From Tetracentron sinense (taxonomy: Eukaryota; Streptophyta; Magnoliopsida; Trochodendrales; Trochodendraceae), in the NCBI GenBank assembly GCA_015143295.1, contig CM026571.1, positions 30,036,505 to 30,100,504 of the forward strand: 64,000 nt of DNA. Direction: 5' to 3'. The notes beneath the pieces are model-generated. The model was not told where the DNA came from and ran no database searches. It saw only the letters and a list, made by a program, of their open reading frames with translations. Positions 17,056 to 43,434 of the stretch are shown piece after piece. A program made the translations under genes and the position numbers. How positions within the stretch are numbered: the stretch's first letter is position 1; every line of letters starts with the position of its first letter.

Positions 17056-17144
17056 TATTTGTCCAGCATCTGATATCCCAGAATTCGCATCCACGAGATT
17101 GTTGGATTCCGGTGACTCAAACCGGAGAGAGAGCTATATCGGCA

Positions 17145-17498
17145 ATGGAGAAAAGGAAAGACGTTCGAGTATATTTGATATCAGGCCTCTTCTTTGTATG
17201 CATAGTAACTGGCGGAGCCTTCTTGGGGATGTACATTTTCCTCCCGGAAAAGCAATCTATGGCCTGGTTTCCCGTCGCAGGGATGGTCCTGGAGGGAATC
17301 CCATGGCTATTTTGGCTCCTCACTTTCATGTATAGATGCTTTAGCACCGCTACTGCTGCTCCCTCAAGCAGTGCAACAATGGCGGCCACAGCAACCATCG
17401 AATGCCCATTGGATTCTCCTAGCGGTGGACGGCGTGTTCATTTCAGAGCCACTATCGTGATGGGGGCACAAGATGCTCAAGTTGACTGCTCTGTGTGA
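17145..17498 (+). CDS. Small two-helix membrane protein, plant-conserved type
   Basis: The ATG at 17145 opens a 117-residue protein. A basic start MEKRKDVR is followed by a hydrophobic helix at residues 8-32 (VYLISGLFFVCIVTGGAFLG...), a short loop with FLPEKQS, and a second helix at residues 41-63 (WFPVAGMVLEGIPWLFWLLT). An alanine/threonine-rich linker follows, then SPSGGRRVHFRATIVMG near the C-terminus. The GGRRVHF motif after a two-helix hairpin recalls an uncharacterised family of small plant membrane proteins; the function is unknown. The TGA at 17496 is followed by 46 sense codons in the same frame, including SASSNGTVPLLRHDS, up to a second TGA at 17637. The family tail may therefore have been cut by a recent stop, or an AAG/GTAGGC donor at 17583/17584 may be used. 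The gene is convergent with TRS33, about 0.8 kb away. Confidence 0.7.
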   Translation: MEKRKDVRVYLISGLFFVCIVTGGAFLGMYIFLPEKQSMAWFPVAGMVLEGIPWLFWLLTFMYRCFSTATAAPSSSATMAATATIECPLDSPSGGRRVHFRATIVMGAQDAQVDCSV

Positions 17499-17639: not shown

Positions 17640-18179
17640 AACCATGTGGTATAGATGAATAGCCCAACAAGATTTGGAGCCGAGAGGAAATCTCCCCTCA
17701 CTAAGAAATGTGGTTTCCTGCAAATGGAGTATGTAATGCAAATGGGAACGAAAGAAGAATACTCCTATAATTGCTTCTTTGTACGCTGTAATATGAACTA
17801 CAAATGAACACAGTGGAAGCTTTCCAACATCTCACCAAGATTACATCAACAAATCAAAATCATGTCTTCGATTTTCAGTTAGTCGAACACCAGAGTACTA
17901 TGCTCATCAATTGTCATTCTGGCCCACGATACTTTCAGGGTCTACACCCTAGGCTATGGACTCGTGTCTACCCTATCACATTCCATATACATAGCCATCT
18001 TTGACTACTAATTGGAGTGTTACCCACCTTGTACATAGTGTCCATGCAATTATGATTTGGACACAAAAAAAAAGACCCTAGCTTTTAAATTATACAGATG
18101 TTGAGATGCAATGAAACCAAATCATGGTTACATATTTTGATCATCTTGAGTAGCCGAATCCAGAAGTTTTTAATAAAAG
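17640..18179. other. 3' UTRs and short intergenic region
   Basis: This region lies between the convergent membrane-protein and TRS33 genes. The frame at 17804-18004 has no recognisable features. Confidence 0.4.
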
Positions 18180-18283: not shown

Positions 18284-18312
18284 TCAGGCCTTTATGCGAA
18301 TCACAAATGAAC
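18284..18312 (-). CDS. TRS33: TRAPP subunit Trs33/TRAPPC6, exon 4
   Basis: After a CAACAG acceptor, the minus strand reads GT TCA TTT GTG ATT CGC and on to TGA. The split T/GT codon from exon 3 makes cysteine, giving C-SFVIRIKA-stop. That is the expected C-terminal beta strand of plant Trs33. The exon codes only eight whole residues, so an open-frame search cannot find it. Confidence 0.85.
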
Positions 18313-19539
18313 CTGTTGATTGATATTTAAAATAAATAATAATTCAAAAAAAATAATAATAAGATACGTAGTAAGTAGGCTCTGTTGTGTATAGATAAAA
18401 AAAAGCACAACTTGAGCTTGTGGACCAACCAACAGATATATGTACTCTACAGGCTGTAGTGTGTACGGACCAAAAAAAACACAGCTTGAGCTGCATGTTG
18501 TGGACCAACCAACGGAGATGGGCACCACTACACTAGAGTTCTAAACACACTTCAAATATGAACAAGTTCAACTTATCAGAGATGATGTAGGAAATCCACA
18601 GATTCTCTACAGGTCCACGAATGACAGGAAAATAGCATATTTTCAGAATACATTGCAATATCTACGCTGAGATTCATGGGAATAAAGAACAGAGAACAGG
18701 ACTGGGAATCAAAAAAGAACTAGAAACACACTTGGGAAACATTGAACAAAGATAATTGCCCGAAAATTGCCCGAAATTAGCGATGTGGATGGAAACCCAG
18801 TGTAGTCACTGGTGATATTGGTATTCTTAACAAAGAAAATGATAAGCTATTGTCGCAGTTTAATGCTTAATATGATGTAGTAGTCTAGGACATGGTGCAT
18901 GTTCTAATAAATCTGCATATTCCAACCAACTAAACATACCTAGGGGCTCTGGCTCACAGATCAACTGGACAGACTCTAGCTACCCAGTCAATTGCATTCC
19001 TAATGAAGTACACATTTGCACCAAGACAATAATCTCATCTAACAGATTTTTGCACAGTCCAGTTGGGAGATTAGGATGGCCAGAAGATCTCCGAGACGGT
19101 TCCATTGATTGGATGGTACATGTGGATCAAAGTATAATTATTCTTTGGGCTTAAATTATTCCAATTTCAGAAACAGGGCTCAGGAGATGAGGGAAGAAGC
19201 AGTCCTCCCTGCTTGCACCAGATAGGTTACAAAAATGACGACGGAGAACCAGTCATGCCAAGGAGATCTCCTAAGTCAAAAATCAAACAGACCGGATGAA
19301 CATAATTTATAACTCAACAACGGATTTCTTTCTTGACCGTTCACCATGTTTCTCTTGACATAAAAAGGGTAAGATAGATTGAATTATGAGAATCATCTGA
19401 GTGGGTCAGGTTTTTGGCCTAGTTCACTTCTAAATGATGCATAATCTGTGCGTGCGTAAAACAGGTAAAAGGAAGGCTTCTTCCTGTCATCTCGTAATCA
19501 TACAAGTAATGCTAAAACATACAGAAAGCTGTAACTCAC
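18313..19539 (-). other. TRS33 intron 3 (1.2 kb)
   Basis: The donor is T/GTGAGT at 19539 and the acceptor is CAG at 18313-18315. It contains a diverged direct repeat with GTGGACCAACCAAC at about 18420 and 18500. I found no other gene. Confidence 0.7.
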
Positions 19540-19771
19540 ATGCAGGGAGGTTGGATATGTCAGCAGAAACTGCACAAGGGATTCCCAAATTTGAAAGTGC
19601 TCCCCTTATGATCCCACATGGGAAGTAGAGATGCATGCTCGTGGCTTGTGTTGACTTGTTCTCAGCAGTAGCCACAGAAGGATCTTGAGATGAATCTGTG
19701 TTTGCTGTGGATGGATCACTTGACATGCGTGTAAGCCATCGGAACCGATTATCTTGCAAGACAAAAGTACC
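19540..19771 (-). CDS. TRS33: TRAPP subunit Trs33/TRAPPC6, exon 3
   Basis: The acceptor TTGCAG is followed by GGT ACT TTT GTC, giving GTFVLQDNRFRWLTRMSSDP. After a variable serine/threonine linker (residues about 110-135) comes MHLYFPCGIIRGALSNLGIP and then CAVSADISNLPA. These are the core Trs33/Bet3-fold strands and helix. The FPCGIIRGAL.NLG segment contributes the conserved hydrophobic core of TRAPP small subunits. The exon has 77 whole codons plus one base; the donor is T/GTGAGT. The linker is the least conserved part of the family, and its length here is normal. Confidence 0.9.
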
Positions 19772-19851
19772 CTGCAAGACGAACATACATGAGTTTGTTA
19801 ACATCTAAGAAATACATACTGTTTCCATGCAACTTAGATTCTAGGACTTAC

Positions 19852-19969
19852 TCTATGGTTAGTCTTCAGGTTGTCTATCTGTTTCTTGAAGAGCTCTGAC
19901 CAGAAATCCTTGCAAATGAACTTGATGGCCTCTAGATGATCACTGAACCGAGGCCGCTCCATGGTATAC
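19852..19969 (-). CDS. TRS33: TRAPP subunit Trs33/TRAPPC6, exon 2
   Basis: After a TTGCCAG acceptor the exon starts with the last base of the split Arg codon. It encodes [20 protein letters not shown] and then [19 protein letters not shown], ending at AGA/GTAAGT. The DFW..LF.KQIDNL.TN.. helix is a hallmark of Trs33/TRAPPC6 and faces its partner subunit in the complex. Intron 2, between exons 2 and 3, is only 80 bp, in contrast to the 14.2 kb intron 1. Confidence 0.9.
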
Positions 19970-20187
19970 CTGGCAACAAGTAAAATCCGGGTGTAGCTCA
20001 CGTAAAGTTTGTTATTATTGTCTTGTATCTAATCTTCAAGCAAGTCTTCAAAGCCAAAGATAACCAAAACTTGTAAGCTATAATAAAGAATAAACACATT
20101 CTCATTTAATTGCTTTTCCTTGGAAAATTAGGAAATAAAGGCGACTCTGTTATCAGGATTTAAAGTTACAACTGAGCTAGGTGCAAG

Positions 20188-20267
20188 CATAGTCACCAAG
20201 TACGGGTACGGGTATTAAACGTCAATGATACGTTCGGGAAGTACGGGAAGTTAAAAATAATAATAAA

Positions 20268-20315
<48 letters not shown>

Positions 20316-20936
20316 TTTAACTCATAATTTAAGCTTACACAGTTGCAAAACAAAGGTAACCACACAAGATTTAAACTACACAGATGCAAAGGATAAGGAG
20401 GAATACCCCTCCCCAATATGTATATAAACTGATTAACTCATATATCCCTAGACATGAAGCTCCCAAAAGCATCACAAGATGGTTTACGTGTTAAAAGAAT
20501 TCTGCGTATGAAAAATGAGTGACTCTTGGGTAGAATCGAAGCTAGTCTCTTCTAGTCCTAGTTAAGGAGATAAACTAGACATTGAAGATGAATAATCCAA
20601 GAGAGAGAGAGAGAAAGACTTATCATTGCCGGAGAGAGGTTCCACCGGAGAGCAGCCAAGTGCGAGACGAGAGAGCTGAGACTTGAGACCAGAACGAGAG
20701 ACGAGGTATTGACGTTTTGCCCTAACACATCGTCTCGTAATTCGTAAAACACGTTTTAACCTTCTTTTTTAAAAAAAAAAGAAGTTTTAAACGCGTATAA
20801 AACGGAGTACGCGTTTAAAACGCGTTTAAAACGTATTTTAAAGTTTAAAACGGCAAACAAGTTTAAAACGGAATTTAAAACGGTGACCCCCTCCAAAAGT
20901 TTTAAACGCGTTTTAAACGGGTACTTTGTGACTATG
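20188..20936. mobile_element. hAT element, 749 bp, with TTTAAAACG repeats
   Basis: The left end is CATAGTCACCAAGTACGGGT and the inverted right end is CATAGTCACAAAGTACCCGT. Flanking 8-mers GGTGCAAG (20180-20187) and AGTGCAAG (20937-20944) differ at one base, consistent with an old hAT target duplication. The interior has an (AT)20 run and many TTTAAAACG/GCGTTTTAAA words near the right end. A related, diverged copy is at 31990-32349. Confidence 0.8.
20273..20311. repeat. (AT)n microsatellite
   Basis: About 19-20 uninterrupted AT units lie inside the hAT element. This is a likely length-variable site. Confidence 0.9.
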
Positions 20937-22489
20937 AGTGCAAGAGGCCAAGTTATCTCAGTGTCTAGGGGATACTGATGTGGTTCTAAAAGGAGCTGAT
21001 TGAGGCCTGAGTCCTAGTTATCTTCAAATGAAATATGGCAATGACTTTGCTGAGTTGGTCCCAAGTTGGCCAAATACAACTCATACCTGTGTCGTTGTTG
21101 GCCGGATCACACGTTGAAACCATCTTTTGAGCTTGGATGGGATCTGATTCTTTATGTTTTGGAAAATACTTGTTAAATGTTGACTGAGACTAATGATCCA
21201 GAAGTAGACGAAGGGCAGCGTCTAATCAATGCTGCTCCGAAGGCTTCAAGCTGCAAAGGTTTGTGAAAGCTGAGATGCAGATTTACTGCAATGCCACGAA
21301 AAAAGGGGGCCAGTTCAGCAGATACGGATGACAATGATGAATATGCAGCTACTACACACAACAACTCGAAAGGCTTGGTTACTTCTAACTCTTTCTGTAT
21401 CAAACACCAAAAAATGAGTGATTCTTGCTAGCTACTACTTTCTCTCAGAAGTAGCCTTTCCGACAAAATTCCTATTATTCGCCTCCTTCCATGAAATCCA
21501 ACAAACCGCCACAGGAACCAAACGCAAAAAAATCATACTCCAGTTGCCAGGGACTCAGCAAGCCAACCCAAAAACTCTCCGCTAGACTCCGTCACTCCGA
21601 GGGAAAAGGGAAAACCCTATGGAAATCCCAACAACCCAATTATGGTGCCCCGCACCTTTGAACTGAATCTACAATATATAGGCAAGTGATAAAATGTCTA
21701 CCCATTCTACGTGCATAATACAAATATATTTGGCATCCTCCAACCCTATGCATAAGATAATCAACCGTGAGGATCTTATCAAGACTCGTCATTCAAAGGA
21801 CAAAGGATATGTTATTTGGATACCCACTTCTCTAGATCAGACAGTTTGGGAAGCTTAGACAAGATATATCCATGGAGGCTAAGTAAAAAGATTTGATTGA
21901 AAGTACTCCTTTCATCTCTATTGACCAAACTCTTTTTCCCTTCAACCGTCGGATTGACGGCTGAGCTGCTCCAATAATTTGATGGTACATCTAATTCCTA
22001 GTAATTCACATCCATTCTTAACATTGGACCCCAAACAAGATTGCCTGAAACAGCAATCTGTATCTTTTCTTCTCTGCCTACTACCCATTTGAATATAGCC
22101 CCAAAATCGAACTTCAAAGGCCTAAAACAACATCAACCATCATTCCAGAAACTAATCTCCCCAACCGATCCTACCTTGAAGCAAATGTGTTTGGAAAACA
22201 AAGTTTATAGCTTCAAAATACCCTTCCAGTCCACACTACCACCCATAGCTACCTCCACCCTCTTACTACCCTATGAGACCTAAACTTCCCCACTACTATC
22301 ACCCTTCGCCACATGTTTTCCCCTTCCTCTCCAAACCTCCACCCAACTTACTCAAAAGATCTTATTTTCATCTCCTTCAACACTCACACACCTATAGTAA
22401 CAAAGTTCTCTATTTTTTTAAAAATTCCCAAATAACACGCGACTTTTTCGTCGAACAATTAATTCTCGCACTATTCACAATTTTTTGAA
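20937..22489. other. Part of TRS33 intron 1, nothing recognised
   Basis: No domain, RNA gene or bounded repeat is visible. The frames at 21173, 22041 and 22273 look like chance frames in C-rich or AT-rich sequence. Confidence 0.4.
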
Positions 22490-22846
22490 AAAATCAACTT
22501 TTTCAAAAAGTCGCAAATTTTACAAATTATTCATGACGTTTAGAAAAAGTTCCAAATAAATATCTAATCTATAGAATATGATTGTTTATAATTTAATAAT
22601 TAGTAATCTTATTTTTCCTATCTTACCCGATGTTTTACCAATTTATTTTCAAATTTTGTCAATTTTTCCTAGATAAATAATTCTCGAACTCCGACTTGGT
22701 ATTACTTTCTCTTTATAATTATTAAATTTATTTTTTAATTGTTAACATTTTTTTTTCAAAATTTTCCTGACTTTGCCAAATTTACTCTCTTTTTTCCAAA
22801 CTAGACGCCTACCGAATTATTTCCGAACCCCGACTTTGTTACTATG
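22490..22846. repeat. AT-rich repeat ending in a hAT-like terminus
   Basis: The right end, read inward, is CATAGTAACAAAGTCGGGGT, close to the ends of 31190-31363 (CATAGTGACTAAGTC). The left part (CTTTTTCAAAAAGTCG and following) resembles 63880-64000. The left border and target duplication are not clear. Confidence 0.45.
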
Positions 22847-24519
22847 ATAGCCAAACCTCCTTCCTCTTACGAGTTACGGCCTACAGACACTCTTCCAATC
22901 AACCATATGATACTTCCTTACGTCGTCCCTTCGTCCGAAGAAAATACCCTTGACTGTTTGTTCTATCACATCAGCCACGGACCATAAAAAAATGAAAAGG
23001 GATACATAGTAATTCAAAATGTTCGATAATGAATTACTTATGAAAGTGTTCTACCCTCTTTTTTATAACAACCCCAACTTCCAAGAAGGAAGTCTTTTCT
23101 TTACTTAACTCACCAACAAAGTTGCAGGAAAGCTATGTACAAGGTGAGAAGCTTGCTTCCCAGGAAGCTCGTTTCCCATACTCGCTTCCGTAGAAGCTCA
23201 TTTCCATCATGTCTTATTTAGTGATAAAATAGGATATGTATGTAGAAAGTGATTGGATAGACTCAAGTTTAAAACCTAGGGTATAGATCTTGAGCAAGTA
23301 TCATTTGATTGAAACCTATGACACCTAGTTCTCCTAAGGAAATCATGTTCCGAGACACGTGCCGGTCGTCAATGACACACAGCGGAAGACTTTACCCGCA
23401 AAAATGTGGGAATTTTAAACTTTTTTTATGAGCTTACATAAGCAATAACAATTGGTCATCACGATAACCCATTATAAGCAAATGCGTTACCTCACTGGCT
23501 ACAGTAGTCCTTACTTTTAGTGTCATAACTACACCGATATACCTCCAGACTCTAAAGTGTAACTCCTTATCAATTGGTAACCGCTTCAGAATCTGAAGAC
23601 ATAAAATAAGATGTGAGTCATAGAGCCCAGCAAAATCCACAGCCCATCTAAACTATTTTCCACATAATAACATTCATCAATAATGATATAGTAGTACAAT
23701 ACAATTCTCATATTATAATAATATCGTAATTCGTGACCCGAGATCACTCAAGGCTATCTCACCTTATTCGAGCTTCCTAACCTCAAAATTGTCAAATTCA
23801 TCCAGTCATTGTCCACGACACCAAGTTACCGTTTCAGATAACCGCTCACGCTTTATCCTTGAGTCCACAGACTCGATTAACTGGGCCTTCGCCCGTGTAC
23901 AACCTCTATCCATGAGTCCACAGACTCAATTATCAACCAATCGGGACTTCTCCCGATTATCACCAATCATTAGGTATGTCGACCTAATTAATCCTTAAAT
24001 CATCATATTCTACACATAACCCGAGTCTTCACCCGATAACTACCAGGAACAAAACTTCTGACACATCACACTCTGTCAGGAACCACACCTCTGACACTTT
24101 ATATTTTCCCTCTATAGGAACACCGACACACACACAATCACATTTGTCAGGAAACACATCTGATCGCCAGCATACACATCTGATTGCCAGGATACACATC
24201 TGATCAGCCATGATACAAATCTGATAGCCAGGAAACTCATCCAACCTGTCAGGAAAATGAAACTCATCTGACAAGCCAGGGACGCACATCTGACCAACAG
24301 GAAACACCTGACCATCAAGAAACACCTGTTTATCAAGTACACATCTGACATATCACTCTGTTAGGCATAACACCTCTGACGTGACACCCTTGTCAGGAAA
24401 CACATCTGATTACCAGGAACGCATCTGACCTGCCAGGAATAACACATCTGACATGCCAGGAACACCCATCTAATAACCAAGAAACACATCCTACACCTCT
24501 GACATCAAATCCTGTCAGA

Positions 24520-24722
24520 CAAAACACATCTGACATTAACCTCTGTCAGGCATAACACCTTTGACATTAACCTCTGCCAGGCATAACACCTTTGACACTA
24601 ACCTCTGTCAGGCACAACACCTCTGACATCAAATCCTGTCAGGCAAAACACATCTAACATTAACCTCTGTCAGGCACAACACTTCCGACATCAAATCCTG
24701 TCAGGCACAACACCTCTGACAG
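24520..24722 (+). repeat. 31-bp minisatellite inside the Gypsy LTR
   Basis: About six to seven tandem units of 31 bp, each with ACACCTCTGACAT and CCTGTCAGGC, fill this block. Looser copies of CATCTGAC and CAGGAA words extend left to about 24040. It decays gradually from the core outward. Confidence 0.8.
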
Positions 24723-25172
24723 CTACCATCATATATCATCACAACCTCTGTTGAGTGTATACCTGCCGACATAGGCCAATGCCCCCTCAAGGTAACATCA
24801 TTGAGTTCGTAAACTCAATACATCACTGGGTCCATAGACCCCAATCCAACCTTGAGCCCATGGCCCAATGTCGTCTTAACTCTCCCGACTATCGGTCACG
24901 GAGGAACCCGGGCTCATAATAGATACCGCATCTCCGGACCTAGCCAAAGAGGGACCACAGACAACATTTCACGTAGGTTAGGTTTTCTAACCATAGGAAA
25001 TCCCCAATTATTCAGGCCCTGCTTGAATAAGGCCTCACACCCGTGGACTAAGTCCTAGGGTATACCGTTCCGGTGTGGAACGTTACCCGGCCGATGGACC
25101 ATTCCATCACCTTACCATGTCCCAACAACATCACATCATACACAAAGGTTGTCCCGAGGTAGGACTTTTACT

Positions 25173-25420
25173 AGGCCAATGGACCCTACCATTGCCTTTA
25201 AAACATCACATCATATCAGATTCGTTCCGATAGGAAACTTAACCAGGCCAATGGACCTACCATTGCCTTAAAACAAACATCACATCATACAAGAGTAGTT
25301 CCGATAGGGAACTTAACCAGGCCAATGGACCTGCCATTGCCTTAAAACAAACATCACATCATACAAGAGTAGTTCCGATAGGGAACTTAACCAGGCCAAT
25401 GGATCCTACCATTGCCTTAC
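25173..25420 (+). repeat. 74-bp tandem repeat inside the Gypsy LTR
   Basis: AGGCCAATGG starts units at about 25173, 25244, 25319 and 25393, so the periods are 71, 75 and 74. Units two to four are nearly identical, including TTCCGATAGGGAACTTAACC. Confidence 0.85.
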
Positions 25421-25979
25421 AATGTCAAAATCACATCACACATATAGAAGCCCAGTCAGGCTCTCATAACTTCCTGCGATCGATTGCACTTCCCCTACGA
25501 TTTATCGCAAATCACACTGAGCCTAAATTCCGAGCTAGAAACAGCCCGAAACTGAGGGCTCCGTCCCTCTGCTCCATTTTCACTCTCATCCATCCCATCC
25601 ATACATCATTCATAAAGTCTCCGACCTTTTTCCATCCACACATAATATCACCAAACTATTCCACATAAATAAAGTAGTTTAAATAAGGGAAAAGAGAAGA
25701 GATGGAGAGGGATTTTACTTCTTTTGCGTTTTTCGAGACGTCTGGGGGCAAAACAGACACTACCAACGCATTCGGGAAAAAGATCAACGCCCAAGGTGAA
25801 GCTCCTCGCCTTCAAACCTGATTTTCCACAAATTTATCAAACACTCAACTAATCAACCTCAGTTAAGGACCCATAAAAGCATAATTTTATTCTATTAAAA
25901 TTCTGGGTCGTTACACTCGCTTCTCACTTTTGATTTGATTCTCGTTTTTGCTTCTCGCTTTGGTAACTATGCCCACCAA

Positions 25980-27587
25980 GACAACAACAAAATCCCAAGA
26001 TGCTTTGGGGCGATACTTAGGCCCAAGAGGAAGGCCTAGCATAAGGAAAATGCCCTAACTTACACCCCAAGTGGCTAGCAAGTTCGCCATGTTTGTTACA
26101 TTCCCAACGTCAAAGATTTTACTTTTACTAAAATTAATTTTTAATCTGTCTCAAAACATCTCGACAAACATTTGAGATATCTCAACTAGGAATGAGAGGT
26201 ATCATAAAGAATCAAGGTATCATTCACAAACTATAGGTGAGATACAATTGGACCGGCGGGCTGCCAGCCTCCCACTCTAAATCCATTAATTACCACGTCT
26301 TCGGCTTTGGTAATGAGTTTACTCAAAGCTTCATAACTATGATGAATGAGAATGGAGAAAGAGGATTTTCTTGCCTCAAACCTGGAAAATTCCTAAAGAA
26401 ACCTGCTGGAGTGCCATTAATGAGGATAGAGAAGGAAGTAGTAGAGTAACAAGCACGGATCCACCTTTTTCCACTTAACGTGAAACCATATCCGATGAAG
26501 CATATACTCCAAGCACAAGCACCAAGTCGGAGTTTGGGAATTATTTGGCTAGGAAAAACATTTGAAAAAACCGTTGAAATGTGATAATTTGGGGAAAATC
26601 AGGAAAATGTCCAAAAATATAAAAAATAAAATTACAAATACATCTTGCTTTGCTCTTCCTTTCGATTCTCTAACCTGGCCAATCAACCATAGAAGACTAA
26701 GTAGAGTGTAAATGCTTCACTCATTCCAGCAATTGGAATGGGCCGAAAGAGAGGGAGGTACCAGTGGGGAGTTTTGTGAACAAATCCCCCTATTTAATTT
26801 TATTTTTTAGTATTATAGGACAACCATCCTTCCCATGCACTGTTCCGCTAATTCTAATTTATATCTCAAGATTTTCAGGAGGCTACAAAGATGGATAATA
26901 TATGAAGTTTAGCATAGATGAGCAGGAGAAACAACTACAATATTTACTCAATGTTTCAAACACCTATGAGAAGTTCTGCATAAAAGGATTGAAAAAATAC
27001 AGAATGTAGCTTGACGAATGTTGTGGGGTTCAGTTGCACCATTAGTTCTTTGGTAAGAGAACAACAACCACTAAAATTTGAGGCTTAGGAACACAAGAGT
27101 TCAGATTCAAAGAAAGGGTGGAAACGTAAATGTAAGAAAAAATAGGGTGACCGAAGAAATACGGATGAACTAGGGATCGAGTCAATAAATCTATATATAA
27201 TCTACTTGCTGATCATTGAATTACGTTGCAACATTCTTCCGATAAGATCAGAATTCTTATTGGATCTACTTACTAATCATGATAAAGTTGTTCTAGTAGT
27301 TGATTATCCATTCATTCAGGATCTTAAACATAGTTTGTGCTAGAATCTGAGCAAAATCGTGAGCCTATGCATTGATTCCAAAACCAAGACTATAAACAAA
27401 GCAACAAAGGTGTAGCCGTGTAGGTAGAAACCATTATCATTGCATATCATGCTCTGAAAGACCAGTCCAATATCCTTATCAGTGTTGCCAAACTATCTTC
27501 AGTTCCAAGTCATTTTTGAATAATAGAGCTCTAATTTGGTTAGAGAGGTCATTGCCGATAAAGTCGGAGCAACTATGAACTATCTCT
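25980..27587. other. Part of TRS33 intron 1, no gene recognised
   Basis: The frame at 26237-26449 has no domain. No bounded repeat was found. This is AT-rich DNA between the split hAT element and the Copia element. Confidence 0.4.
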
Positions 27588-27770
27588 GTTGATATATGTA
27601 ATATCGGGGGTATACATGTAAAAGGGCATATATGTAATGTTCTCTCTTAATATAAGATGCTAGTAGGGTTCTCTATCCCTAACTGAGCAATTTACCCTAA
27701 TCTCTCTTCTTCTTCTCTTTTCTCTCTTTCACTTCTCTAAACCCTAAATCCTCAAAACTCATTCTCCAAC
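27588..27770 (+). mobile_element. Copia 5' LTR
   Basis: It starts TGTTGATATATGTAATATCG, contains CT-rich and AAACCCTAAATCC words, and ends near CTCCAACT. A degraded primer-binding region follows, then gag at 28344. The layout mirrors the minus-strand LTR at 4607-4801, but the sequences are only loosely alike. Confidence 0.55.
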
Positions 27771-28343
27771 TTCGTACCAGTATCACAACAAAGGAAGAAG
27801 AAGCTTGTTAAAACCAGAAGCAAGCACCAAAGGAAGAAGACACACTAGTGACGTCACCAGCCGTACGGCTGACATCAACGATATAGCCTAGGATGCTCCT
27901 TGGGGTACTCTGAAGGTATTTTTTTTTAGAGAGGTTGATTTTAGAGGATTTTTTAATCCTATTTCATGTTATTTAGATAAATATTGATGAAATTACAATG
28001 ATTTGAAGAAAAAATACATAAAAGTTCCATTAAAAATATTGTTTCGGTTCAGAATTTTTTCCGCATGAATGGGTTGTTGTTCCCGCAGGTTATTGGTCAT
28101 GGTTGGGCCGTTTTTTTTATAAGAACATATTCAACCTGTTTTTTCTCCATTTGGATGAGTTTTTAAGTAGTTGTGAAGTTTTTAGAGGCCCTATTCACTT
28201 CAGTTTTTTTGCTGTTAAAGGGTTTTTTATGCCCTATTTGCTTATAACAACTTAGGTCCTCTTTTTTTGGTAAACTTCATACCATTGGATCTTTTGTTGA
28301 AGAGATATTGATTGATCGGTAGTTTGCTACTTGAGTTTTTTCT

Positions 28344-30729
28344 TTGGATGCTAAAGTTCTTACTCCATCGGCTCTTTCTAACTCAGTTGTCCACTCTATC
28401 ACCAATATTAAATTCAATGGTGATAATTTTCTTGCGTGGCGATACTCGGTTGAGCTTTATATTAGGGTTGTTCTAAGATGGGGTATCTTGATGGTAAGAC
28501 CCTACAGATGGAGACAAAGTATTTATGAGATTGCTAAGTGGAAGGTCGAGAATTGCATTATTTTGGGCTGGTTGTTTAATTCTATGGAGCCTCAAATTGC
28601 CATGGAATACATTTTCTATAAGAATTTTCATGAGCTTCGAGATGCTCTTGTTCATACTTATGTCTTAGTAGAGAATGATGCTCGGATTTATCAACTTACT
28701 CGTGAGATTGCTCACTTTCGATAAGGGGATGTCTATCTCAGATTATTTTGGGGCTCTCCAGCGTCATTGAGAAGAATTGAGTCATTATGAGCCTCTTTCT
28801 GAATTGTCCGATGCTTTTGCCAAGGTTATAACGAAGCGAATTGAGAGTCATCGCATTTATGATTTCTTGGGTGGTCTTCGGGTCAAACTCGAGTAGTTGT
28901 GTACTCAGACACTTGCCACATCTCCTCTACCCTCTCTTCAATCTATGTGTACTCCACTGTGTTTGGTGAGGAACGTCACCGGGCTGTTATGTCTTCAAGC
29001 ACCACTCCTATGCCCCATCCAGACCATACCGCGTTTGCCACCGATTTCCACTCTGCTGCATGCCATGGTAGTGGGGTTGATAGGGGTCGTCGTGGCGTTC
29101 GAGGTTGTTGCAGACTTACTACTCCTTGTGCTCACTGTGGTATAGTTGGACATGATAGTGATCATTGTCATCGTCTGCATGGCTATCCCAAGAGTTACCA
29201 GTCTCGCTCTACTGCTCACTTTACTACAACTCCTGCTATTGATCCTCCGTCCTTCTCAGTTGTTGCGAGTGTATCCTTTGGAGTCCATGAGAGCCCAAGT
29301 TGCGGAGATGATCTGAGCTGAGTTCCGTCTCCAGAGTGATTCTCCTAATATTGCTGCTTCATCTGCCACAAGTATCCATGCTCACTCAGCATATGCCGTC
29401 ACTACATCGTCTTCTCCTAGCTGGGTTATTGATTCCAGAGCTACTGATCATATGATTGGGGTTATTCCATTATTCACCTCCATCGCCTACTACCAAGGTT
29501 CGCTTGACTGATGGTTCTGTTACTCCGGTTTTAGGACATACTTGTATCTCCATCTCTCTTTATTTCATGTTTTACATCTTCCTCATTTATCTTCTAACCT
29601 TCTTTCAGCTAGTAGTTTTATTATCAAACCTAATTATTGTGCTATGTTTTATCATTCTCATCGTCTCTTTCAGGACCTGACTACGAGGAGGATTGTTGGC
29701 TCGACACTGATTATGCTCCTGATCGTGTCTCCTCTACTGCTGCTACTGTTTTTGTTTTTCCCTTTTTTTTGTTGATGCTACTCTTGATACTTATTATTTA
29801 TGGCATGCCAAGCTTGGGCATGTTGGATCTAAGACTTTATGTTCTTTGATTTCTATTTTAGTAAACTTTATTTATCATCTACTTTTCAATGTGATACTTG
29901 TGAGCTTACTAAACATGTTCGTACTGGTTATCCTCACATGCATAGATATCATTCTATTTTTCAATTAGTTCATTTTGATATTTGGGGATCATCTCTTGTT
30001 CCCTCAAGTGATGGTTTTCGTTATAATGTTACTTTTATTGATGATTACGTTCGGGCTACTTAGGTTTACCTTCTTAAGTCTAAGGATGAGGTGTTTTCTA
30101 AATTTCAGGAATTGCATGCTATGATTGTTACCCAATTTAGTGGTCTTATTAAGACCTTTTGTTCTGATAATGGTGGTGAGTATCTCTCTGCTCCTTTTGT
30201 CCAGTTTCTTCAAACTTATGGTGTTGCTCATCAGCTTACCTGTCTTTACACTCCTCAACAAAATAGCGTTGCTGAGTGCAAGAATCATCATTTTGTCGGT
30301 GTCACTCGTTCTTTATTGTGAGACATGCAAGTGCCTAAGCCTTATTGGTCTATGGCTCTTCTCACTGTCTGTTTTCTCATCAATCAGACACCTTCTCGCA
30401 TTCTTGATGGCCTCTCAACATATCAGCTTCTTTGCCCTCAGCTTCCTATTTTTCTCATTGAGCCACGGGTATTTAGTTGTACCTACTTTGTCCAGGATCT
30501 TTGTCCAAGTCATAAAAAATTGGATGATAATAGATGTATCTTTGTTGTTTACTCTAGCATCTCTAAAGGCTATCGATGTTATGACCCCCAGTCTCGTCGT
30601 TTCTTTGTCTCTCTGGATGTTACTTTTTTCGAGACAGTTCATTATTTCTCTCATGCTCTTATTGTGCCTCCTGTCTCTGTCTTTACCTACTGTTTCTCCT
30701 ATCTCTATTCCTTTACCTATTAGTCTATT
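28344..30729 (+). pseudogene. Decayed Copia gag-integrase, reverse transcriptase missing
   Basis: In order: gag (ITNIKFNGDNFLAWRYSVEL near 28410, then a helical region to 28720), a zinc-knuckle-like stretch near 29120-29175 (CAHCG...GH...C), a protease-like WVIDS near 29420, a pre-integrase CDTCELTKHVRTGYP at about 29900, and the integrase core. The integrase core keeps FDIWGSS (first Asp), FCSDNGGEY (second Asp) and TPQQNSVAECKNHH (Glu). Stops and frameshifts interrupt it at least at 28722, 28894, 30061 and 30319. The sequence breaks off after the integrase C-terminal region (FVSLDVTFFETVHYF), where the miniature LTR element begins. No reverse transcriptase, RNase H or 3' LTR follows. It lies antisense in TRS33 intron 1. 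Confidence 0.85.
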
Positions 30730-31043
30730 TGATGCAGGAGCATCCACATTGGGGTAGGGTGGCATACGGGGTGGGGCCCATTAAGAGGTGGCCCATGGGG
30801 TAGGGCCCGCTGAGGTGGGGTGGCCCACGAGGTAGGGTGACCCATGGGGTAGGGCCAACTTGGGGGTCTCGACCAGGTTGCCTAGGCTATAAGATAAAGG
30901 GGTTTAATCTCAAGCTCCCATCAGTCACGACTTTTGTGGAGTATTGGTTAAGTTCCTGCATCAAATGATATCAGAGCAGGTATCGGGTTCGAGTCTCCTC
31001 ACCGGTGTGGGTGGATGATGCAGAAGCATCTCCACATTGGGCC
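30730..31043 (+). mobile_element. Miniature LTR element (TRIM-like)
   Basis: A 234-bp repeat unit, 30730-30963, starts TGATGCAGGA and ends TCCTGCATCA, a perfect 10-bp inverted terminus. Two bases later comes TGATATCAGAGC, a primer-binding site one base off the tRNA-Met type. After only about 52 bp of internal sequence, a second LTR start, TGATGCAGAAGCATC, appears at 31016 and is cut off at about 31043. A complete element this small would be a terminal-repeat retrotransposon in miniature. GGTGGGGTGGCCC-type G-rich repeats fill the first LTR. Confidence 0.7.
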
Positions 31044-31187
31044 GACGTGGTCGTGGCGTTCGAGGTTGTGGCAAACTTATTACTCCTTGTACTCACTGTG
31101 GTATAGTGAGGCATGATCGTGATCATTATTATCATCTGCATGGCTATCCCGAGAGTTACCAGCCTCACTCTGCTACTCACTTTACCC
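31044..31187 (+). pseudogene. Second copy of the Copia gag zinc-knuckle region
   Basis: This 144-bp stretch is collinear with about 29085-29225 of the Copia pseudogene. Both share CGTGGCGTTCGAGGTTG, ACTCACTGTGGTATAGT and TGCATGGCTATCCC. It is fused directly to the truncated second LTR of the miniature element. It may be captured or template-switched gag sequence, or part of a second Copia copy. Confidence 0.8.
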
Positions 31188-31363
31188 CGAATTTCCCAAA
31201 CTATTCTTGAATTTGGCAAAAAAACTACTACTTTTATATTTTTTTTAATTAAATTGTTCAATTTATTTTTATAATTATTAATTATTTTTTCCTGATTTTT
31301 TTCGAATTATCTCCGAACTTGATCCCTTTCAAATTATTTCCAAAATTTGACTTAGTCACTATG
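31188..31363. repeat. AT-rich fragment with hAT-like right end
   Basis: It ends CTTAGTCACTATG; read inward this is CATAGTGACTAAGTC. The interior shares GAATTATYTCCGAAC-type words with 22800-22846. The left border is lost at the gag fragment. Confidence 0.4.
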
Positions 31364-31989
31364 TTAGAAACCTGAAAAACTTATGAATACACATTAAAGT
31401 TGATAAATAATTGTAATTCAATTTAGTTTCTAAACCTATTTCAATATACAATTGATGAACTCAATGTTTTTACAATACTAAATCAATATGTGAAGAGGAG
31501 ATGAATAGTTAAATAAATTTTAATTTATGAAATACTATTAGGAAATTATTTAAATGTTTAATATTACTAAAAAGCTCTCATGGGCATAATATACTAATAA
31601 TAAAATTATTAGAATAAAAAATTATAATTTATAATAAGTTTAATGGTAACCACACTCTAATAATAAAATAATTATTTATAATAAGGTTTTTTTTTATCGA
31701 TAAGCAAGGGAGTATATTAATCAGAAAGAATGTACAAGCAGAAATTACAGTACAATGCAAAGTTTACAGCGGCGTAAACCAAAGGTAACTAAAATAGCAT
31801 CATCCCAACACATCACCTAGATCCATCCCGCCATTACAAATGGAGACGCATTCAAAGATCAAAATGCAAATTCAAGCCTGAATAGTAGAAATAGGAGATG
31901 AGGAATTGTCAAAGACTCTCCAATTTCTTTGATGCCATATTGACCATGATATGGCCCTGGTAGAACCCTTAAAATCGCCCTCTTGGCAC
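31364..31989. other. AT-rich intron segment, nothing recognised
   Basis: Very AT-rich up to 31700. I see no coding or bounded repeat. Confidence 0.4.
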
Positions 31990-32349
31990 CATAGTTACCA
32001 AACACTCATATGATACCCATATAATATTTTTAGAGAGTGTTCTCGTTTAAAACTGCGTGTTTTTACCGTGTTACGAATTATACCCGTATTGCTTTATAAT
32101 ACTCATTTAATACATGAATTACGTATTAAACGCGTACAATATGCATATTTTTGCCGTACTTTTACCGTGTTAAACGCATATTTCATATTAAATGATTATT
32201 ATTAGTTAATATTAGGAGTTTTATTTATTTATAATTATTAATTATTTTTAAATTATCCCGTTCTTTTGCTGTGTTTTTGCCGTATAACACCCGTACTTCC
32301 CGAACGGATCATTGCTGTATTATACCCGTACCTGTACTTGGTAACTATG
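31990..32349. mobile_element. hAT-type MITE related to the one at 20188
   Basis: The ends are CATAGTTACCAAACACTC and, read inward from the right, CATAGTTACCAAGTACAGGT. Shared words with 20188-20936 include GTACTTCCCGAACG (inverse) and runs of TTAAACGCGT. The flanking 8-mers do not match, so no target duplication is visible. Confidence 0.6.
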
Positions 32350-34154
32350 ATCCCCATGAGATGATTGTGCATATATAATAACTCATTATTAATGATTTCT
32401 TCTAAATGATTTGGGTTCCTCATATGACGTTTTTTCTTTCTTCTTTATACTTTAGCCTTTGGGTAATTCCATTGGCTTCAATATATATACATATATAATT
32501 AAGCTAACCACGTTGGCATGCAAAAGAAATAAGGGATGTGTTATCAATAGAATCCACCACATGCCATTAGTCCACAACTAAACAATCTACAATATCAGAT
32601 TGGTAGATCCTCAAATTTTACGAGTGGAAGATCACAACTCAAAGAGATGAACGAGCGGATCTAGACCTTCCAAGCTTACCAGCAGTTAAAAGGAGTGTAA
32701 ATCATCAAACAGTCCTCCGACTTGTACAAGAGAAATTATTGATGGCTCAACCAATAAAATTTTGTCCAACCTGAAAATTTAATAATTAGGATTCGATTCT
32801 ACTGCCGACAAAGTCTATTCAGTTCTATCTTTGGGGAGGTCCGGCCAAAGATTCATGTGATACCCTCCTTTAGACTAAATCCTCACTAGACCTGATCTTA
32901 CCCGGGGATAAACCCAAAGTCCAAACCACCTTAATGCCCCAATTATGGTTACAAGCCCACGTTACTGAGCTCAGCTAAAGGACTCATTTGCACAAAAGAA
33001 ATGTAAAATTGATGAGAATCCATAAGCAATTTTGCACACTATTTAACATGAGTTTACTAATGGTTCAAAGGTGAGAGATAAGGTTTGATGGCTACAACTA
33101 GATCATGAGAATTTTGGACTAATGTTGAAATCCAAAAGGAGGTACATGGTCTGGATTGATGAAACCCCCAAAACTCCTTTTTTTTTTTTAAATTAAGAGA
33201 CTAGTATTTTTAAACATCTACAATGAATATGTAATTATGAAAAAAAAACAGATTCTCAACCTTGAATAGATAAATAGGTTTAGTCATTTGTCCTTTCAAA
33301 GTGTAAGCCTTCTATGCTAATTTGGGGCAAGAGGGGTCAAGCCGTCAGGCGGCCAGGACATAGACTTGCTCACATAAATTCTAATCAAACCAAGTTACCA
33401 GATTATACTCAAGTATGAGAGGTCTATTCAACTTTTCTTCGGAAGAATGTTATAGCTTTTTTCTTTATTTCTTGCAGCTTTGCAAATACATGCTCAAGAA
33501 AGAAAATATTGCAAGAATTATCATAGAAGGTTCAAAATTACAACCATCAAAGATCAGCACAAAGTAAAGCACTGATCAGAAATTTCATTAATCAGTTAAA
33601 CAATTTAAGAGCAAGTCATTCTAGTCTATCAATCAAGTTATGAAATAACACATACCCAAGCAAACCAAATATAATATAGAAATCATCATACAAATATAAT
33701 GAAACCTGAGGGCATGTAAGAGCCAAAAGAATTCTCTACTACTGAAAGCAGCTTAATCATTACCACTATTATTTCTTAATATAGGTATTAGGTGTTTTTC
33801 AGAGATGATTGAATTTAAGATTGTTGTATAAATTTGATAATCCAATTCCAGAATCGACTGTAATTCAAAAAGAGACGTGAACAGATTTAACAGAACCCAA
33901 TAATGAGTCAAAAAAAAAAACTATCACTGTAATGTACCATTGCAGACTCTGATTTTAACAACGGATTGAATATGATTCCTCTTTCAAAACAACATGAATG
34001 CTAACACAGTAATCCAGATTTTTATCTCTCAATTTTAGTAAAATAGTAAGTGAAGTTATGGAGTTGGCAATAAAGACACCTCGAGGAAAAAGAAAGCATT
34101 AGGGTTTGAGATCTGAAAGAGAAAATGCAGAAGGGAATTAGGGTTTGAAAATAC
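32350..34154. other. TRS33 intron 1, gene-proximal part
   Basis: No transposon ends or coding domains are recognised. This may be original intron sequence next to exon 1. Confidence 0.4.
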
Positions 34155-34305
34155 CTCTCGGAGAGCTGGAGACCGACCTGGTAGCCGATGGCCTCGATTC
34201 TACGGGCGGCGAGATCAGGCTTGTTCACATAGAATCGGTTGCAGTACGCCGATACCATCTCTATGATCACACTGTCCACGCAGCTCTCTGACACCTCCCT
34301 CCCCA

Positions 34306-34306
<1 letters not shown>
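34155..34306 (-). CDS. TRS33: TRAPP subunit Trs33/TRAPPC6, exon 1 (start codon)
   Basis: Trs33/TRAPPC6 is a small subunit of the TRAPP complex. This complex tethers vesicles and activates Rab/Ypt GTPases at the Golgi. The minus-strand ATG at 34306 starts MGREVSESCVDSVIIEMVSA and then YCNRFYVNKPDLAARRIEAIGYQVGLQLSER, the well-conserved plant N-terminus. The exon ends GAGAG/GTATTT with a split Arg codon. Joining 152 + 118 + 232 + 29 nt gives 531 nt, an intact 176-residue protein with no internal stop. That is the normal length for plant Trs33, so the gene looks functional despite its 14.2 kb first intron. Upstream is a (GA)16-like leader. Confidence 0.92.

Positions 34307-34308
<2 letters not shown>

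Positions 34309-34340
<32 letters not shown>
34309..34340. promoter_or_regulatory. (CT/GA)16 in the TRS33 5' leader
   Basis: An uninterrupted CT run (GA on the gene strand) starts 3 bp upstream of the TRS33 ATG. GA/CT runs in plant 5' UTRs are common and can bind GAGA-binding (BBR/BPC) factors. Its closeness to the start codon is unusual. Confidence 0.65.
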
Positions 34341-34345
<5 letters not shown>

Positions 34346-34956
34346 GGGTTTTCTTTTCTGTTTGGGACCAAATTTGGGTTATAATGAATTGATAAGTCCT
34401 ATGACCTATGCAAGAGATCGAATCACAGCCAATTACGATTGGATTCGAGGAGAGTTCAATTGCACCCACAAGTCACCATGTGTCCCCGTTAATCCCAGTT
34501 AACTCTGGTTAAGATTCACTAACCTTTAGGGTTTAATAATCTTAGGATGATTCATCTTCCTAAAGGCTTCCACTCCAGGCTGCTGAGGTGGGTGGACATC
34601 AACATGTCTCCCATGCCTTGCCTGGCATGATGTCATGAAGGCAATCTGCTGAGTATTGTCGTGGTAAGGGTCTCCATGATATGGCTCATATCTGGCTAAC
34701 GACTACCTTCTAGAGTGTCCCCGTCAGTCAACTTCCCCCTCCATTTCTATTCCTCTCCGCATGACGATATCCTAATGCAATCATAAACTGTACATCTTTT
34801 AGATGAAAATATACCTCTTTTTAATTTTAGAAAAATAGTTTTTGGGGGGCATACATTGAATCCCAAGAACTGATTAAGATTCTAATTGATTTTATTCAAT
34901 GAAGGTAGGAATAACAATCACCTTTGCGACTTTGAAATTGTTAAGTCAAATCTACA
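34341..34956. other. TRS33 promoter region and intergenic DNA
   Basis: It contains TTTAGGGTTTAAT (34525-34540), a telobox-like word common in promoters of housekeeping genes. I saw no gene here. Confidence 0.4.
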
Positions 34957-34961
34957 TTAGA

Positions 34962-36979
34962 ATAGTACTCGCAAAACTTCACAAGTGTCGAGTCTCCTGT
35001 CGATTCACACGAACCTTCTTTTTCCTTTAAAGTTTTCTCTAATGGAAGTTAATGGTCTTTCCAAATATCCAGCTCTATGAATCTTATATAAAAGATCCAA
35101 TCATTATTCTTCAAGATGGGTTCTTGATCTCTTATTGATATTCAAAACTATAACACAAGAGAACAAGAATAAAGGGGCAACGGGGATGACCGTACACTCC
35201 AAGAAAGGGAGAGAGAGGGGCGCGAGTTTATGAGGAGAGGAGAGAGTGATATAAAAAAAATTATGGAATTTTTAATTACCCCCACAATGGGGGACGTCCT
35301 CCCTTATTTATAAATTCATCTTGGATCTTGACCTTATCCTAATCCAATTAGGATATCATCAATTTGTTTCTTTTTTTATTTCCCCATAATTAATTAGGAT
35401 TAATCAAAATAGAAACTAATCTTATCCATTAGTAACCAACTAACCATATTTTTATCCTAATCCAATTAGGATTCCTTGATTAGCAAGAAACTAATATAAT
35501 CCTTGTCCAACAAGGAATCTTTAATTAGTAACTAACTCTAACTAACTAACTAACCTTATCCAATAAGGATATTAGTTATTTAGAAACTAATTAAATAAAT
35601 AATAACAATTATTATTTCTTCCATGAAGTGGGCGTCCCACCCTAGGTGGGCCCCACTCCACACGCCCCCAATGAGTTCTAAACCCTTTTAGTCACTTTAC
35701 TTGATCTTTTATCATATTCCCCAATGGGTCCTACCCATTTAGTTTTTTTCACATCTAATATGATTCCACCTTTTTAAAGCTTCATTATACCATATAGTGA
35801 TTACTTAGAAAAATTAATTAATTTAATTAATAATTAAATTAAATACTTTAAGAAGGTCCTTGTGTGTGGGATCTAAAGGGATCTCCTATTTCCGGTTGTG
35901 GGACCAAGTACTCAACCTTTTGGCTAAAGCATTGTTACTATGAAACACATTTCCTATACTCCATTAGGATTATAGAATTTTATCTATATCCCTGGACTTC
36001 CACCAATCACAATTAATGTCCATTAACACAATGTGATTAACCTCCAAAAATTAGAGAATTGCTTGTAAATATCATCTCACAATATATTTACAAATAAATC
36101 CTTCCACATTCCGATGTCACTTGTAAGCTTCCGGGATTGGAACAATTCCACTATCTAGTCCCTAGCTTATGAATAGAACCCTTTCTCATGATTACTTTTT
36201 CATTGAACTGAACCTCCAAAACACTTTTGAAGAAACATTAGAAAAGAACTGACATGAATATTTATATATACTTTTTCATATTGAAAATATCAACTTCGAT
36301 AAAGACCATTTTACTGAAAAGCACTAGTACTGGATTTAACAGTTCAGTTCAACAAGTATCACCTAAATATCATTATCTCCAATTAAGGAGTTGTGGATTC
36401 CTTATTGAGTGTTTACACACTTCTCCAAACATTGTGTACATGACCCAACGTACCCAGAGTTAGTCCTGTGTATTGGACATTGCCGATTGGCACATTAAAG
36501 CCATATAGACAGATGTCTGAAAAGATGTTAACCTCTCAGGTCTAAGGACAATTTGTCAAATGGATAACCCTAATACAATCTGATAGTGTATTCCATAGGG
36601 TATCCACTAGTGACCCCGTTCAGTATTATGTATTTGCTACATATACTCACATGTTAGTCAAGAGTCACCACTCTCTGTGAATGAGATTCATCACATTATC
36701 TCATAGAACTATACATGTGCAAGCCATGATGAAGTACGGCGCTCAACCAGTACTATAGAGGCTTCGAACAATATTAGGTTTACAAGGAACCGAAAAATCA
36801 TATCTCCTCGCAACCTTTGCATGATTTTCCTGCAATGTTACCTATGGAACTTTATGTCTTCATCATATGAGACAGTAATTAATATAAATACCCTTTATAG
36901 TTGGTTGTGTGAATATGATGTTTATCTAATCAACATAGAAAAGTCTCTTATTGGCTTTCGAGGGCATATATGTCCAACA
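34962..36979 (-). mobile_element. Solo LTR, about 2.0 kb, copy 1 (TSD TTAGA)
   Basis: Flanked by TTAGA on both sides (34957-34961, 36980-36984). Its right end, read on the minus strand, starts TGTTGGACATATATGCCCTC. It is collinear over its full length with 40527-42527, for example GTCGATTCACACGAACCTTC near the left end and GGGATCTAAAGGGATCTCCT in the middle. No internal domain or partner LTR adjoins it. The left end is about 10-14 bp shorter than in copy 2. Confidence 0.75.
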
Positions 36980-42200: not shown

Positions 42201-43434
42201 GCTAGTTAAGAGTCAACACTCTCTGTGAATGAGATTCATCACACTATCTTATAGAATTACACATGTGCAAGCCAAGATGAAATACGACGCCCAACCAGTA
42301 CTCTAGAGGCTTAGAACATTATTAGGTTTATAAGGAATTGGAAAATCATATCTCCTCGCAACCTTTACATGATTTCCCTACAATGTTACCTATGAAATAT
42401 TATGTCATCATCAAATGAGACATTAACGATTATAAATACCCTTTATATATAGTTGCGTGAATGTGATGCTTCTCTAATCAACATAGAAAAGTCTTATATT
42501 GGCTTTCGAGGGCATATATGTCCAACAATCATATTCAAATCATATAAACATGATTATCAACAACAAGGTATAACTACTCTAAAAATCACCATTCCAAAAT
42601 TACAGTTTCATAACCTTAAATCCATCATCATAAATCCATGACCACAATTTCATCATCATCAATCAGTAGCCATATAATAACTCTCATGATTATTATCAAT
42701 TTAACACTATCATCGTATTCACCCTTAATACATACCAAAACGTGAATCCATCCCCTTTCCATCATGCAAGATCATATCATTCTCTTAAAATCATTCAAAA
42801 CCACTTACAAGCATATTCAGATCTTATTGATTAAATAGTTCTATCATAGCATCATTAAAATTACAGTATATGATACCTTTTGAATCGCTTCACTACGATT
42901 TATCACTTGAGAATGCTCTTGGAAGCGATCTCCAAGCTCCTTTTTTTTCTCCTTGGAATAAAACCCATTTCAAAAGCTTAGGTCAATCTCTAAGATTTCT
43001 CAGCCTCTTAGAATGTTAAAAACCTCAATCCTCACGAGTTTATGGTCTTTATATAGGCCAAGGAGTCCTTAGAGACTTCTAATTCTCAGAAATTCGAATT
43101 TTAAAGTGTTTTCTGGGCAAAACACTAACAGGTGGTTGACAGGGTTAGAGGGCCGGTTGACCGGATGAGGTCTGTCGATCGGGCAATCAACCGGATGTGC
43201 TTGGGAGGCTACTATTTTTGAATTTATGCACTTTTCTTACTAGTCGGTCAACCGGCTTGCTCTGCTCTCGATTATTTTGCTATTTTTCTTCTTCCTAATC
43301 TTTGATTATTATTCATACAACATCCACAACATAAACATAAATATTTAATTTAAGTGTTTTGACACATAATTAAATGTCTCATTCAATTTGCACAAAGTTC
43401 AATACTTGAAGTTTTTTTTTAGGGTCTCTACACA
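39286..43434. mobile_element. Second Gypsy-like LTR region, interrupted by a solo LTR
   Basis: The sequence on both sides of the solo LTR at 40527-42527 reads as one LTR-like unit. It ends AGGGTCTCTACA at 43434, inside MULE coding sequence, and contains GCGATCTCCAAGCT in the same relative place as the LTR at 37130-39285. The left border was not found. The 43140-43260 part is rich in GGTCAACCGG words. Treat it as a probable LTR remnant. Confidence 0.42.
40527..42527 (-). mobile_element. Solo LTR, 2.0 kb, copy 2 (TSD ATCAT)
   Basis: Perfect 5-bp duplication ATCAT at 40522-40526 and 42528-42532. It is the same family as 34962-36979. Read on the minus strand it starts TGTTGGACATATATGCCCTC and ends about TCTCACACC(A). 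The two copies carry different target duplications, so they are separate insertions and not the two ends of one element. Confidence 0.82.

What the first reader, a model, noticed from the sequence alone, without database searches (positions are those of the whole stretch)
18284..34306. Intact TRS33 gene stretched by a 14.2 kb transposon-built first intron
Four exons with consensus splice sites join into an uninterrupted 176-residue Trs33/TRAPPC6, yet intron 1 holds at least five transposons, some nested inside others. Intron 2 is only 80 bp. Exon 4 codes just eight whole residues. A housekeeping trafficking gene that tolerates this load raises questions about splicing accuracy, intronic heterochromatin (IBM2/EDM2-type protection) and alternative polyadenylation.
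Basis: partly seen in the sequence, partly recalled or inferred. Interest (0 to 1): 0.72.

Follow-up and report, generated by a model that had tools for sequence, protein, structure and literature searches.

The report
Plant TRS33 gene with transposon-filled intron
An intact plant gene for a standard membrane-traffic protein carries a 14-kb first intron about half filled with old, mostly broken transposons, which looks ordinary for a large plant genome: a neighbouring gene has an even longer first intron.

Summary
Four GT-AG exons on the minus strand join into an open 176-residue TRS33/TRAPPC6 (Pfam TRAPP 1.3e-42), and homology to TRAPPC6B runs across all three junctions. Intron 1 is 14,185 bp; 7,298 bp, tentative pieces included, are assigned to mobile elements: CATAGT-ended MITEs, an LTR-like block, a Copia remnant. 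Four elements are well supported; nesting only partly. New: the window copy is the only intact TRS33 among six matches in the 1.16-Gb assembly. A copy on C1 lacks exon 1 and most of exon 4 and is frameshifted; C22 holds a decayed exon 1. C1 also shows the empty site of the MITE at 20188-20936, so that insertion followed the duplication. The neighbouring GLTSCR1-like gene has a 23.4-kb first intron, and TE-filled long introns in transcribed plant genes are in print, so this is ordinary: a new member of a known kind. Splicing, expression and chromatin could not be tested. Residual oddity: seven exact MITE-end motifs in the intron against three in 169.8 kb elsewhere.

The parts
34155..34306 (-). 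TRS33 exon 1 (coding part, ATG at 34306)
19970..34154 (-). Intron 1, 14,185 bp, GT..AG
19852..19969 (-). TRS33 exon 2
19772..19851 (-). Intron 2, 80 bp
19540..19771 (-). TRS33 exon 3
18313..19539 (-). Intron 3, 1,227 bp
18284..18312 (-). TRS33 exon 4: end of a split codon, eight residues and the stop
   Evidence: AATAAA at 18185 downstream
20188..20936 (.). hAT-like MITE, TIR CATAGTCACC, target duplication GTGCAAG
   Evidence: empty site in the C1 copy
22393..22846 (.). Probable MITE of the same TIR family (ends match at 13 of the first 14 bp, no target duplication found)
23319..25915 (-). LTR-like block (TGTAACGACCC end at 25915), with 31- and 74-bp tandem repeats; no Pfam match in the two pieces scanned
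   Evidence: diverged copy at about 47330-50214 with TATCG on both sides
23132..25971 (.). Possible older MITE-like element holding the LTR-like block (relative near 60255-60570, minus)
   Evidence: right end weak
28335..30720 (+). Broken Copia-type remnant: gag, gag-pre-integrase, integrase and SH3-like pieces in several frames, opposite to the gene
31047..31185 (+). Second copy of 139 nt of the Copia gag region (88% to 29086-29224), after a GC-rich stretch 30737-31045
31990..32349 (.). MITE, TIR CATAGTTACCAA, copy with the same ends in L007

Best explanation
This is the only intact TRS33 gene found in the plant's assembly, coding the shared TRAPP subunit Trs33/TRAPPC6. An existing first intron grew to 14.2 kb as small hAT-like MITEs, an LTR-like element and a Copia element landed in it and decayed. 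The pre-mRNA is most likely spliced by the ordinary spliceosome, exon 1 to exon 2 over 14 kb, giving a normal 176-residue protein. Shown: intact gene structure, mobile-element identity of several blocks, one insertion ordered in time by an empty site, no second intact copy among the assembly matches. Inferred: that it is transcribed and spliced so, and that the TEs lie in silenced intronic chromatin.
For: Open joined frame with GT-AG sites; homology across all junctions; TRAPP 1.3e-42. Six genome matches: three are exons 1-3 of this gene, two belong to the C1 copy, one to C22. The C1 copy has indels of -6 and +2 in exon 2 and of -10, -9, -2 and +3 in exon 3, lacks the exon 4 acceptor and most of exon 4, and shows no exon 1 in about 30 kb upstream. 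C22 holds exon 1 alone with two stops. Empty site. TE evidence. A neighbour's 23,404-bp first intron suggests that long introns are normal here.
Against: No transcript, methylation or protein data were available. Donor 1 (GAG|GTATTT) and acceptor 3 (A-rich, ATCAATCAACAG) look weaker than the consensus that I recall. About half of the intron is unassigned. The assembly may be incomplete, and the genome search scores only the best candidates. The comparison with other introns of this genome rests on one other gene.
Confidence: 0.88

Rival explanations
1. The intronic TEs form heterochromatin, and full-length TRS33 mRNA depends on an IBM2/EDM2-type system; without it, transcripts end early in intron 1. 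(This adds to the best explanation rather than excluding it.)
For: Position fits: heterochromatic introns in rice are longer and biased to promoter-proximal positions, and OsIBM2 regulates such genes (PMC7145194, abstract and first part of Results). 12 AATAAA motifs lie on the gene strand in intron 1.
Against: AATAAA density equals the window average (12 in 14.2 kb, 53 in 64 kb). [quoted passage not shown] Nothing here measures methylation.
Confidence: 0.35
2. The gene model is a computational join: exon 1 and exons 2-4 belong to separate transcripts, or a misassembly brought them together.
For: 14 kb lies between exons 1 and 2, and elsewhere in the assembly exon 1 (C22) and exons 2-3 (C1) occur apart.
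Against: Exon 1 ends in a GT donor in phase with exon 2, giving the LSER|YT junction that aligns to TRAPPC6B without a gap. Both separate copies are broken. No N in the window.
Confidence: 0.03
3. Oppositely oriented MITE ends at 20188-20247 and 32290-32349 pair in the pre-mRNA, loop out 12 kb and bring the splice sites close.
For: 60-nt arms, 88% complementary, predicted duplex -90.0 kcal/mol against -43.2 for the best of about 4,000 random 60-mer pairs from the two ends of the intron. The same idea is proposed for large mammalian introns (PMC2773006, abstract).
Against: About 45% of random 14.2-kb stretches of this window hold at least one of its nine inverted pairs at E up to 1e-8, this pair included, so presence is no sign of selection; duplex energies of the other eight were not computed. 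The C1 copy lacks the MITE at 20188, so the arm is probably not ancestral. No probing data.
Confidence: 0.06

Closest known systems
Arabidopsis TRS33 (At3g05000) / TRAPPC6A, TRAPPC6B / yeast Trs33
   Same: TRAPP family; residues 35-174 of the window protein align to TRAPPC6B. At3g05000 is listed as TRS33 in PMC4871884 (passages)
   Different: A stretch of 18 residues in the window protein has no counterpart in TRAPPC6B, and residues 1-34 are not aligned; the Arabidopsis sequence and gene structure were not compared here
Long LTR-containing introns of Chloranthus and magnoliids (PMC8626473; passages seen)
   Same: Ordinary genes, coding lengths kept, introns lengthened by retroelements; the paper's example is a TFIID subunit gene
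   Different: Here MITEs contribute at least as many assigned elements as retroelements; species not identified
Genes with intronic heterochromatin under IBM2 in rice (PMC7145194; abstract and first part of Results)
   Same: Long, TE-containing, promoter-proximal intron
   Different: Chromatin state and IBM2 dependence not tested here
Long-intron genes of Picea glauca (PMC4108047; abstract and section list)
   Same: One or a few long introns per gene with repeats, conserved exons
   Different: This genome is 1.16 Gb, far smaller than a conifer's (recalled)

Membership tests
TRS33/TRAPPC6 (TRAPP subunit) | TRAPP domain over the full profile | tested here: met
   PF04051 E=1.3e-42, profile 4-154 of 154
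TRS33/TRAPPC6 (TRAPP subunit) | Closer to TRAPPC6/Trs33 than to TRAPPC5/Trs31 | tested here: met
   Of 11 PDB sequences matched, the best six (70-134 bits) are two TRAPPC6B, one TRAPPC6A, one Trs33 and two under other names (GEO08327p1, R32611_2); TRAPPC5 and Trs31 score 22-25 bits
TRS33/TRAPPC6 (TRAPP subunit) | Assembles in TRAPP | not testable with these tools
   No experiment
TE-expanded long plant intron | Intron of many kb with much recognisable mobile DNA, exons intact | tested here: met
   14,185 bp, about 51% assigned including tentative pieces
TE-expanded long plant intron | Insertion shown by an empty site | tested here: met
   One element: C1 lacks 20188-20936 and has one, diverged, copy of the target; not shown for the others
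hAT-type MITE (20188-20936) | Short TIRs, 5-8 bp target duplication, no coding capacity | tested here: met
   TIRs match at 15 of the first 16 bp; 7-bp exact or 8-bp one-mismatch duplication; longest stop-to-stop frames there 71-85 codons, not scanned with Pfam. hAT by duplication length is recalled; no transposase seen
hAT-type MITE (31990-32349) | Target-site duplication | tested here: not met
   None of 4 bp or more found with ends shifted up to 3 bp, though the ends are shared with the L007 copy
Ty1/copia retrotransposon (28335-30720) | gag and integrase pieces in copia order | tested here: met
   SH3_retrovirus 2.8e-16 above its cut-off; rve 6e-7 and gag_pre-integrs 8.7e-5 below theirs; gag match 0.012; 2 of 8 pieces without a match
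Ty1/copia retrotransposon (28335-30720) | Paired LTRs and reverse transcriptase | tested here: not met
   No LTR pair in the self-comparison; no RT among the 8 pieces scanned of those listed for this region, so a remnant; not every piece was scanned
IBM2/EDM2-regulated gene | CHG methylation and H3K9me2 in the intron, 3' end loss without IBM2/EDM2 | not testable with these tools
   No epigenomic data

The most novel reading that the evidence does not exclude
Intron 1 is a hot spot for one MITE family (seven exact TIR motifs in 14.2 kb against none in the other 49.8 kb of the window and three in 120 kb from other loci), and an oppositely oriented pair of its ends near the two intron ends forms a 60-nt RNA bridge that shortens the splice distance from 14 kb to about 2 kb, so that some insertions help to splice the long intron that TEs created.
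Probability: 0.06. Interest if true: 0.55.

Novelty: new member of a known kind. Interest (0 to 1): 0.2.

Why it matters
It is a clean example of how a plant keeps its only intact copy of a trafficking gene while transposons lengthen an intron, with a broken duplicate that lets at least one insertion be ordered in time. It does not change the general picture: long TE-filled introns are already documented in transcribed plant genes. If the MITE-bridge reading were true it would give a plant test of the proposal made for mammalian repeats.

Tried and rejected
A macro-transposon spanning 20188-32349 (its two ends are 88% complementary over 60 nt): rejected, because the target duplication belongs to 20188-20936 and the flanks printed show, by eye, none for 20188 with 32349. 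A duplicated exon 4 at 17784-17831 (tblastn E=0.037): rejected as chance; the best local DNA match is 10 bp and no AG stands before it. Backsplicing of exons 2-3 through intron 1/intron 3 repeats: only three weak matches, at the A/T-rich end of intron 3. Rfam and tRNA scans of the window: nothing. Bacterial promoter/terminator scan of 34100-34700: nothing, and not made for plants. A TRAPP-family control (intron lengths of Bet3, Trs31 and others through PF04051) and genome copy numbers of two MITEs and of the LTR-like block could not be run: the genome search did not complete. Paper searches gave context; I make no claim that this gene is absent from print.
Full report
OBSERVATION. The four exons on the minus strand were joined from the window DNA: 531 nt, 176 residues, no internal stop, all introns GT-AG, phases 2, 0 and 1. 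Intron lengths are 14,185, 80 and 1,227 bp. The protein matches Pfam TRAPP over nearly the whole profile (E=1.3e-42). Against PDB chains its best match is TRAPPC6B (2cfh_C, E=5.6e-38; human by recall), with residues 35-174 aligned; the three splice junctions fall in stretches aligned without a nearby gap. An AATAAA lies at 18185, about 0.1 kb past the stop.

IS IT THE ONLY COPY? The window lies at C21:30036505-30100504 of a 1,161,278,568-bp assembly in 1,479 contigs. A six-frame search with the protein gave six matches: three are exons 1-3 of this gene, two lie side by side on C1, one on C22. The C1 copy is part of a duplicated segment: relatives of the gene at 17144-17478 and of GLTSCR1 exon 1 lie within the same 10 kb, in changed order. 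It keeps exons 2 and 3 with introns, but exon 2 has a 6-bp deletion and a 2-bp insertion, exon 3 has deletions of 10, 9 and 2 bp and a 3-bp insertion, the exon 4 acceptor and most of exon 4 are missing, and no exon 1 is seen in about 30 kb upstream. The C22 copy is exon 1 alone, with two stops in the match, and no exon 2-4 in the 40 kb around it.

WHAT FILLS INTRON 1. (a) 20188-20936: TIRs CATAGTCACCAAGTAC / CATAGTCACAAAGTAC, flanked by GTGCAAG on both sides. The C1 copy aligns to the intron on both sides of this element but lacks it and has the target once, in a diverged form. The simplest reading is an empty site: the element inserted after the duplication, into an intron that already existed; a clean loss from C1 is not excluded. 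(b) 22393-22846: TIRs only, no target duplication. (c) 23319-25915: a block ending TGTAACGACCC on the minus strand, with tandem repeats. A diverged copy (66-79% in the four main collinear pieces) at about 47330-50214 is flanked, by eye, by TATCG on both sides. The window block itself has no clear target duplication. (d) Around it, a MITE-like element: the left 187 bp match an element at about 60255-60570 (score 83, shuffle maximum 28), the right 56 bp only weakly (18.5, maximum 16), and the joined flanks did not align as one. (e) 28335-30720: Copia pieces in copia order, broken over several frames, opposite to the gene. SH3_retrovirus is above its curated cut-off; rve and gag_pre-integrase are below theirs; two of eight pieces had no match. 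Five other intron pieces scanned had no match above a cut-off. 139 nt of the gag region recur at 31047-31185 (88%). No paired LTRs were seen. (f) 31990-32349: TIRs, and a 78% copy over all 360 bp in L007, but no target duplication. (g) A lone TIR motif at 31352-31363. Together with tentative pieces this is 7,298 of 14,185 bp. In the 120 kb of L007-L018, (b), (c) and (e) had no match.

HOW UNUSUAL? The GLTSCR1-like gene at about 51610 (Pfam GLTSCR1 6.6e-6, just below its cut-off) has its exon 1 donor at 52104. No continuation was found in 74 downstream plus-strand ORF pieces scanned with Pfam (four pieces from the simple-repeat stretch, of the 78 listed, were left out). A recalled plant probe found the next exon about 11.5 kb past the window end (92% over 113 residues), with acceptor GCAG at window coordinates 75504-75507: a first intron of 23,404 bp. 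So of two genes here with a measured first intron, TRS33's is the shorter; a wider control could not be run. In print, over 10% of rice genes carry intronic heterochromatin, biased to promoter-proximal introns (PMC7145194, abstract and first part of Results); Chloranthus and six magnoliids have average introns of 1.3-3.7 kb in 2,184 orthologues, with LTRs as the main contributor in Chloranthus (PMC8626473, passages); Picea genes have one or a few long introns with repeats (PMC4108047, abstract); pine genes with introns of 85 and 106 kb holding TEs are described (PMC7602945, passages).

MECHANISM. Most likely, TRS33 is spliced as usual over 14 kb. Chromatin protection of the IBM2/EDM2 type is plausible by position but untested. 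AATAAA motifs on the gene strand are not enriched (12 in the intron, 53 in 64 kb). The oppositely oriented MITE ends at 20188-20247 and 32290-32349 would form a -90.0 kcal/mol duplex against -43.2 for the best of about 4,000 random pairs. But 45% of random 14.2-kb stretches of this window hold at least one of its nine inverted pairs at E up to 1e-8, this pair included, and the arm at 20188 is probably a late insertion. I therefore rate a bridge at 6%.

RESIDUAL ODDITY. The exact TIR motif CATAGTNACNAA occurs seven times in the window, all seven in intron 1, and three times in 120 kb from other loci. With one mismatch allowed there are 15 matches in the window, nine of them in intron 1, against 6.0 expected for the whole window by shuffling. 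The motif was chosen from the intron, and the seven ends make at most five elements, so significance is overstated; still, the intron looks like a local nest of one MITE family.

LIMITS. No transcript or chromatin data, species not named, genome-wide controls not run because the genome search did not complete.

Noticed in passing
51610-52103, continuing at window coordinate 75508 (L016): GLTSCR1-like gene on the + strand with a 23.4-kb first intron running past the window end (next exon found with a recalled probe).
   Followed up: yes
34418-34541: Repeat 112 bp upstream of the TRS33 ATG, with 13 matches (32-124 bp, E up to 1e-4) in the 120 kb of L007-L018: the TRS33 promoter or 5' leader may be TE-derived.
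   Followed up: partly
35479-36979 and 41059-42527: Direct repeats of about 1.5 kb, 82% identical, 4.1 kb apart, both ending AGGGCATATATGTCCAACA: possibly the LTR pair of an element about 1.2 kb upstream of the TRS33 ATG.
   Followed up: partly
43572-43958 (-): Piece of a MULE transposase (PF10551 2.8e-14).
   Followed up: no
20188-32349: Seven exact CATAGTNACNAA TIR motifs inside intron 1, none elsewhere in the window, three in 120 kb of other loci.
   Followed up: partly
C1:11257534-11266749 (L004, L010): Duplicated segment with a dead TRS33 copy and relatives of two neighbouring genes in changed gene order; a rearrangement may have cut through intron 1.
   Followed up: partly
17145-17498 (+): Open frame for a small protein, partly hydrophobic by eye, convergent with TRS33; no Pfam match above a cut-off, DNA about 75% identical to a stretch on C1.
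   Followed up: no
62622-63063: CCA-type microsatellite of about 440 bp.
   Followed up: no
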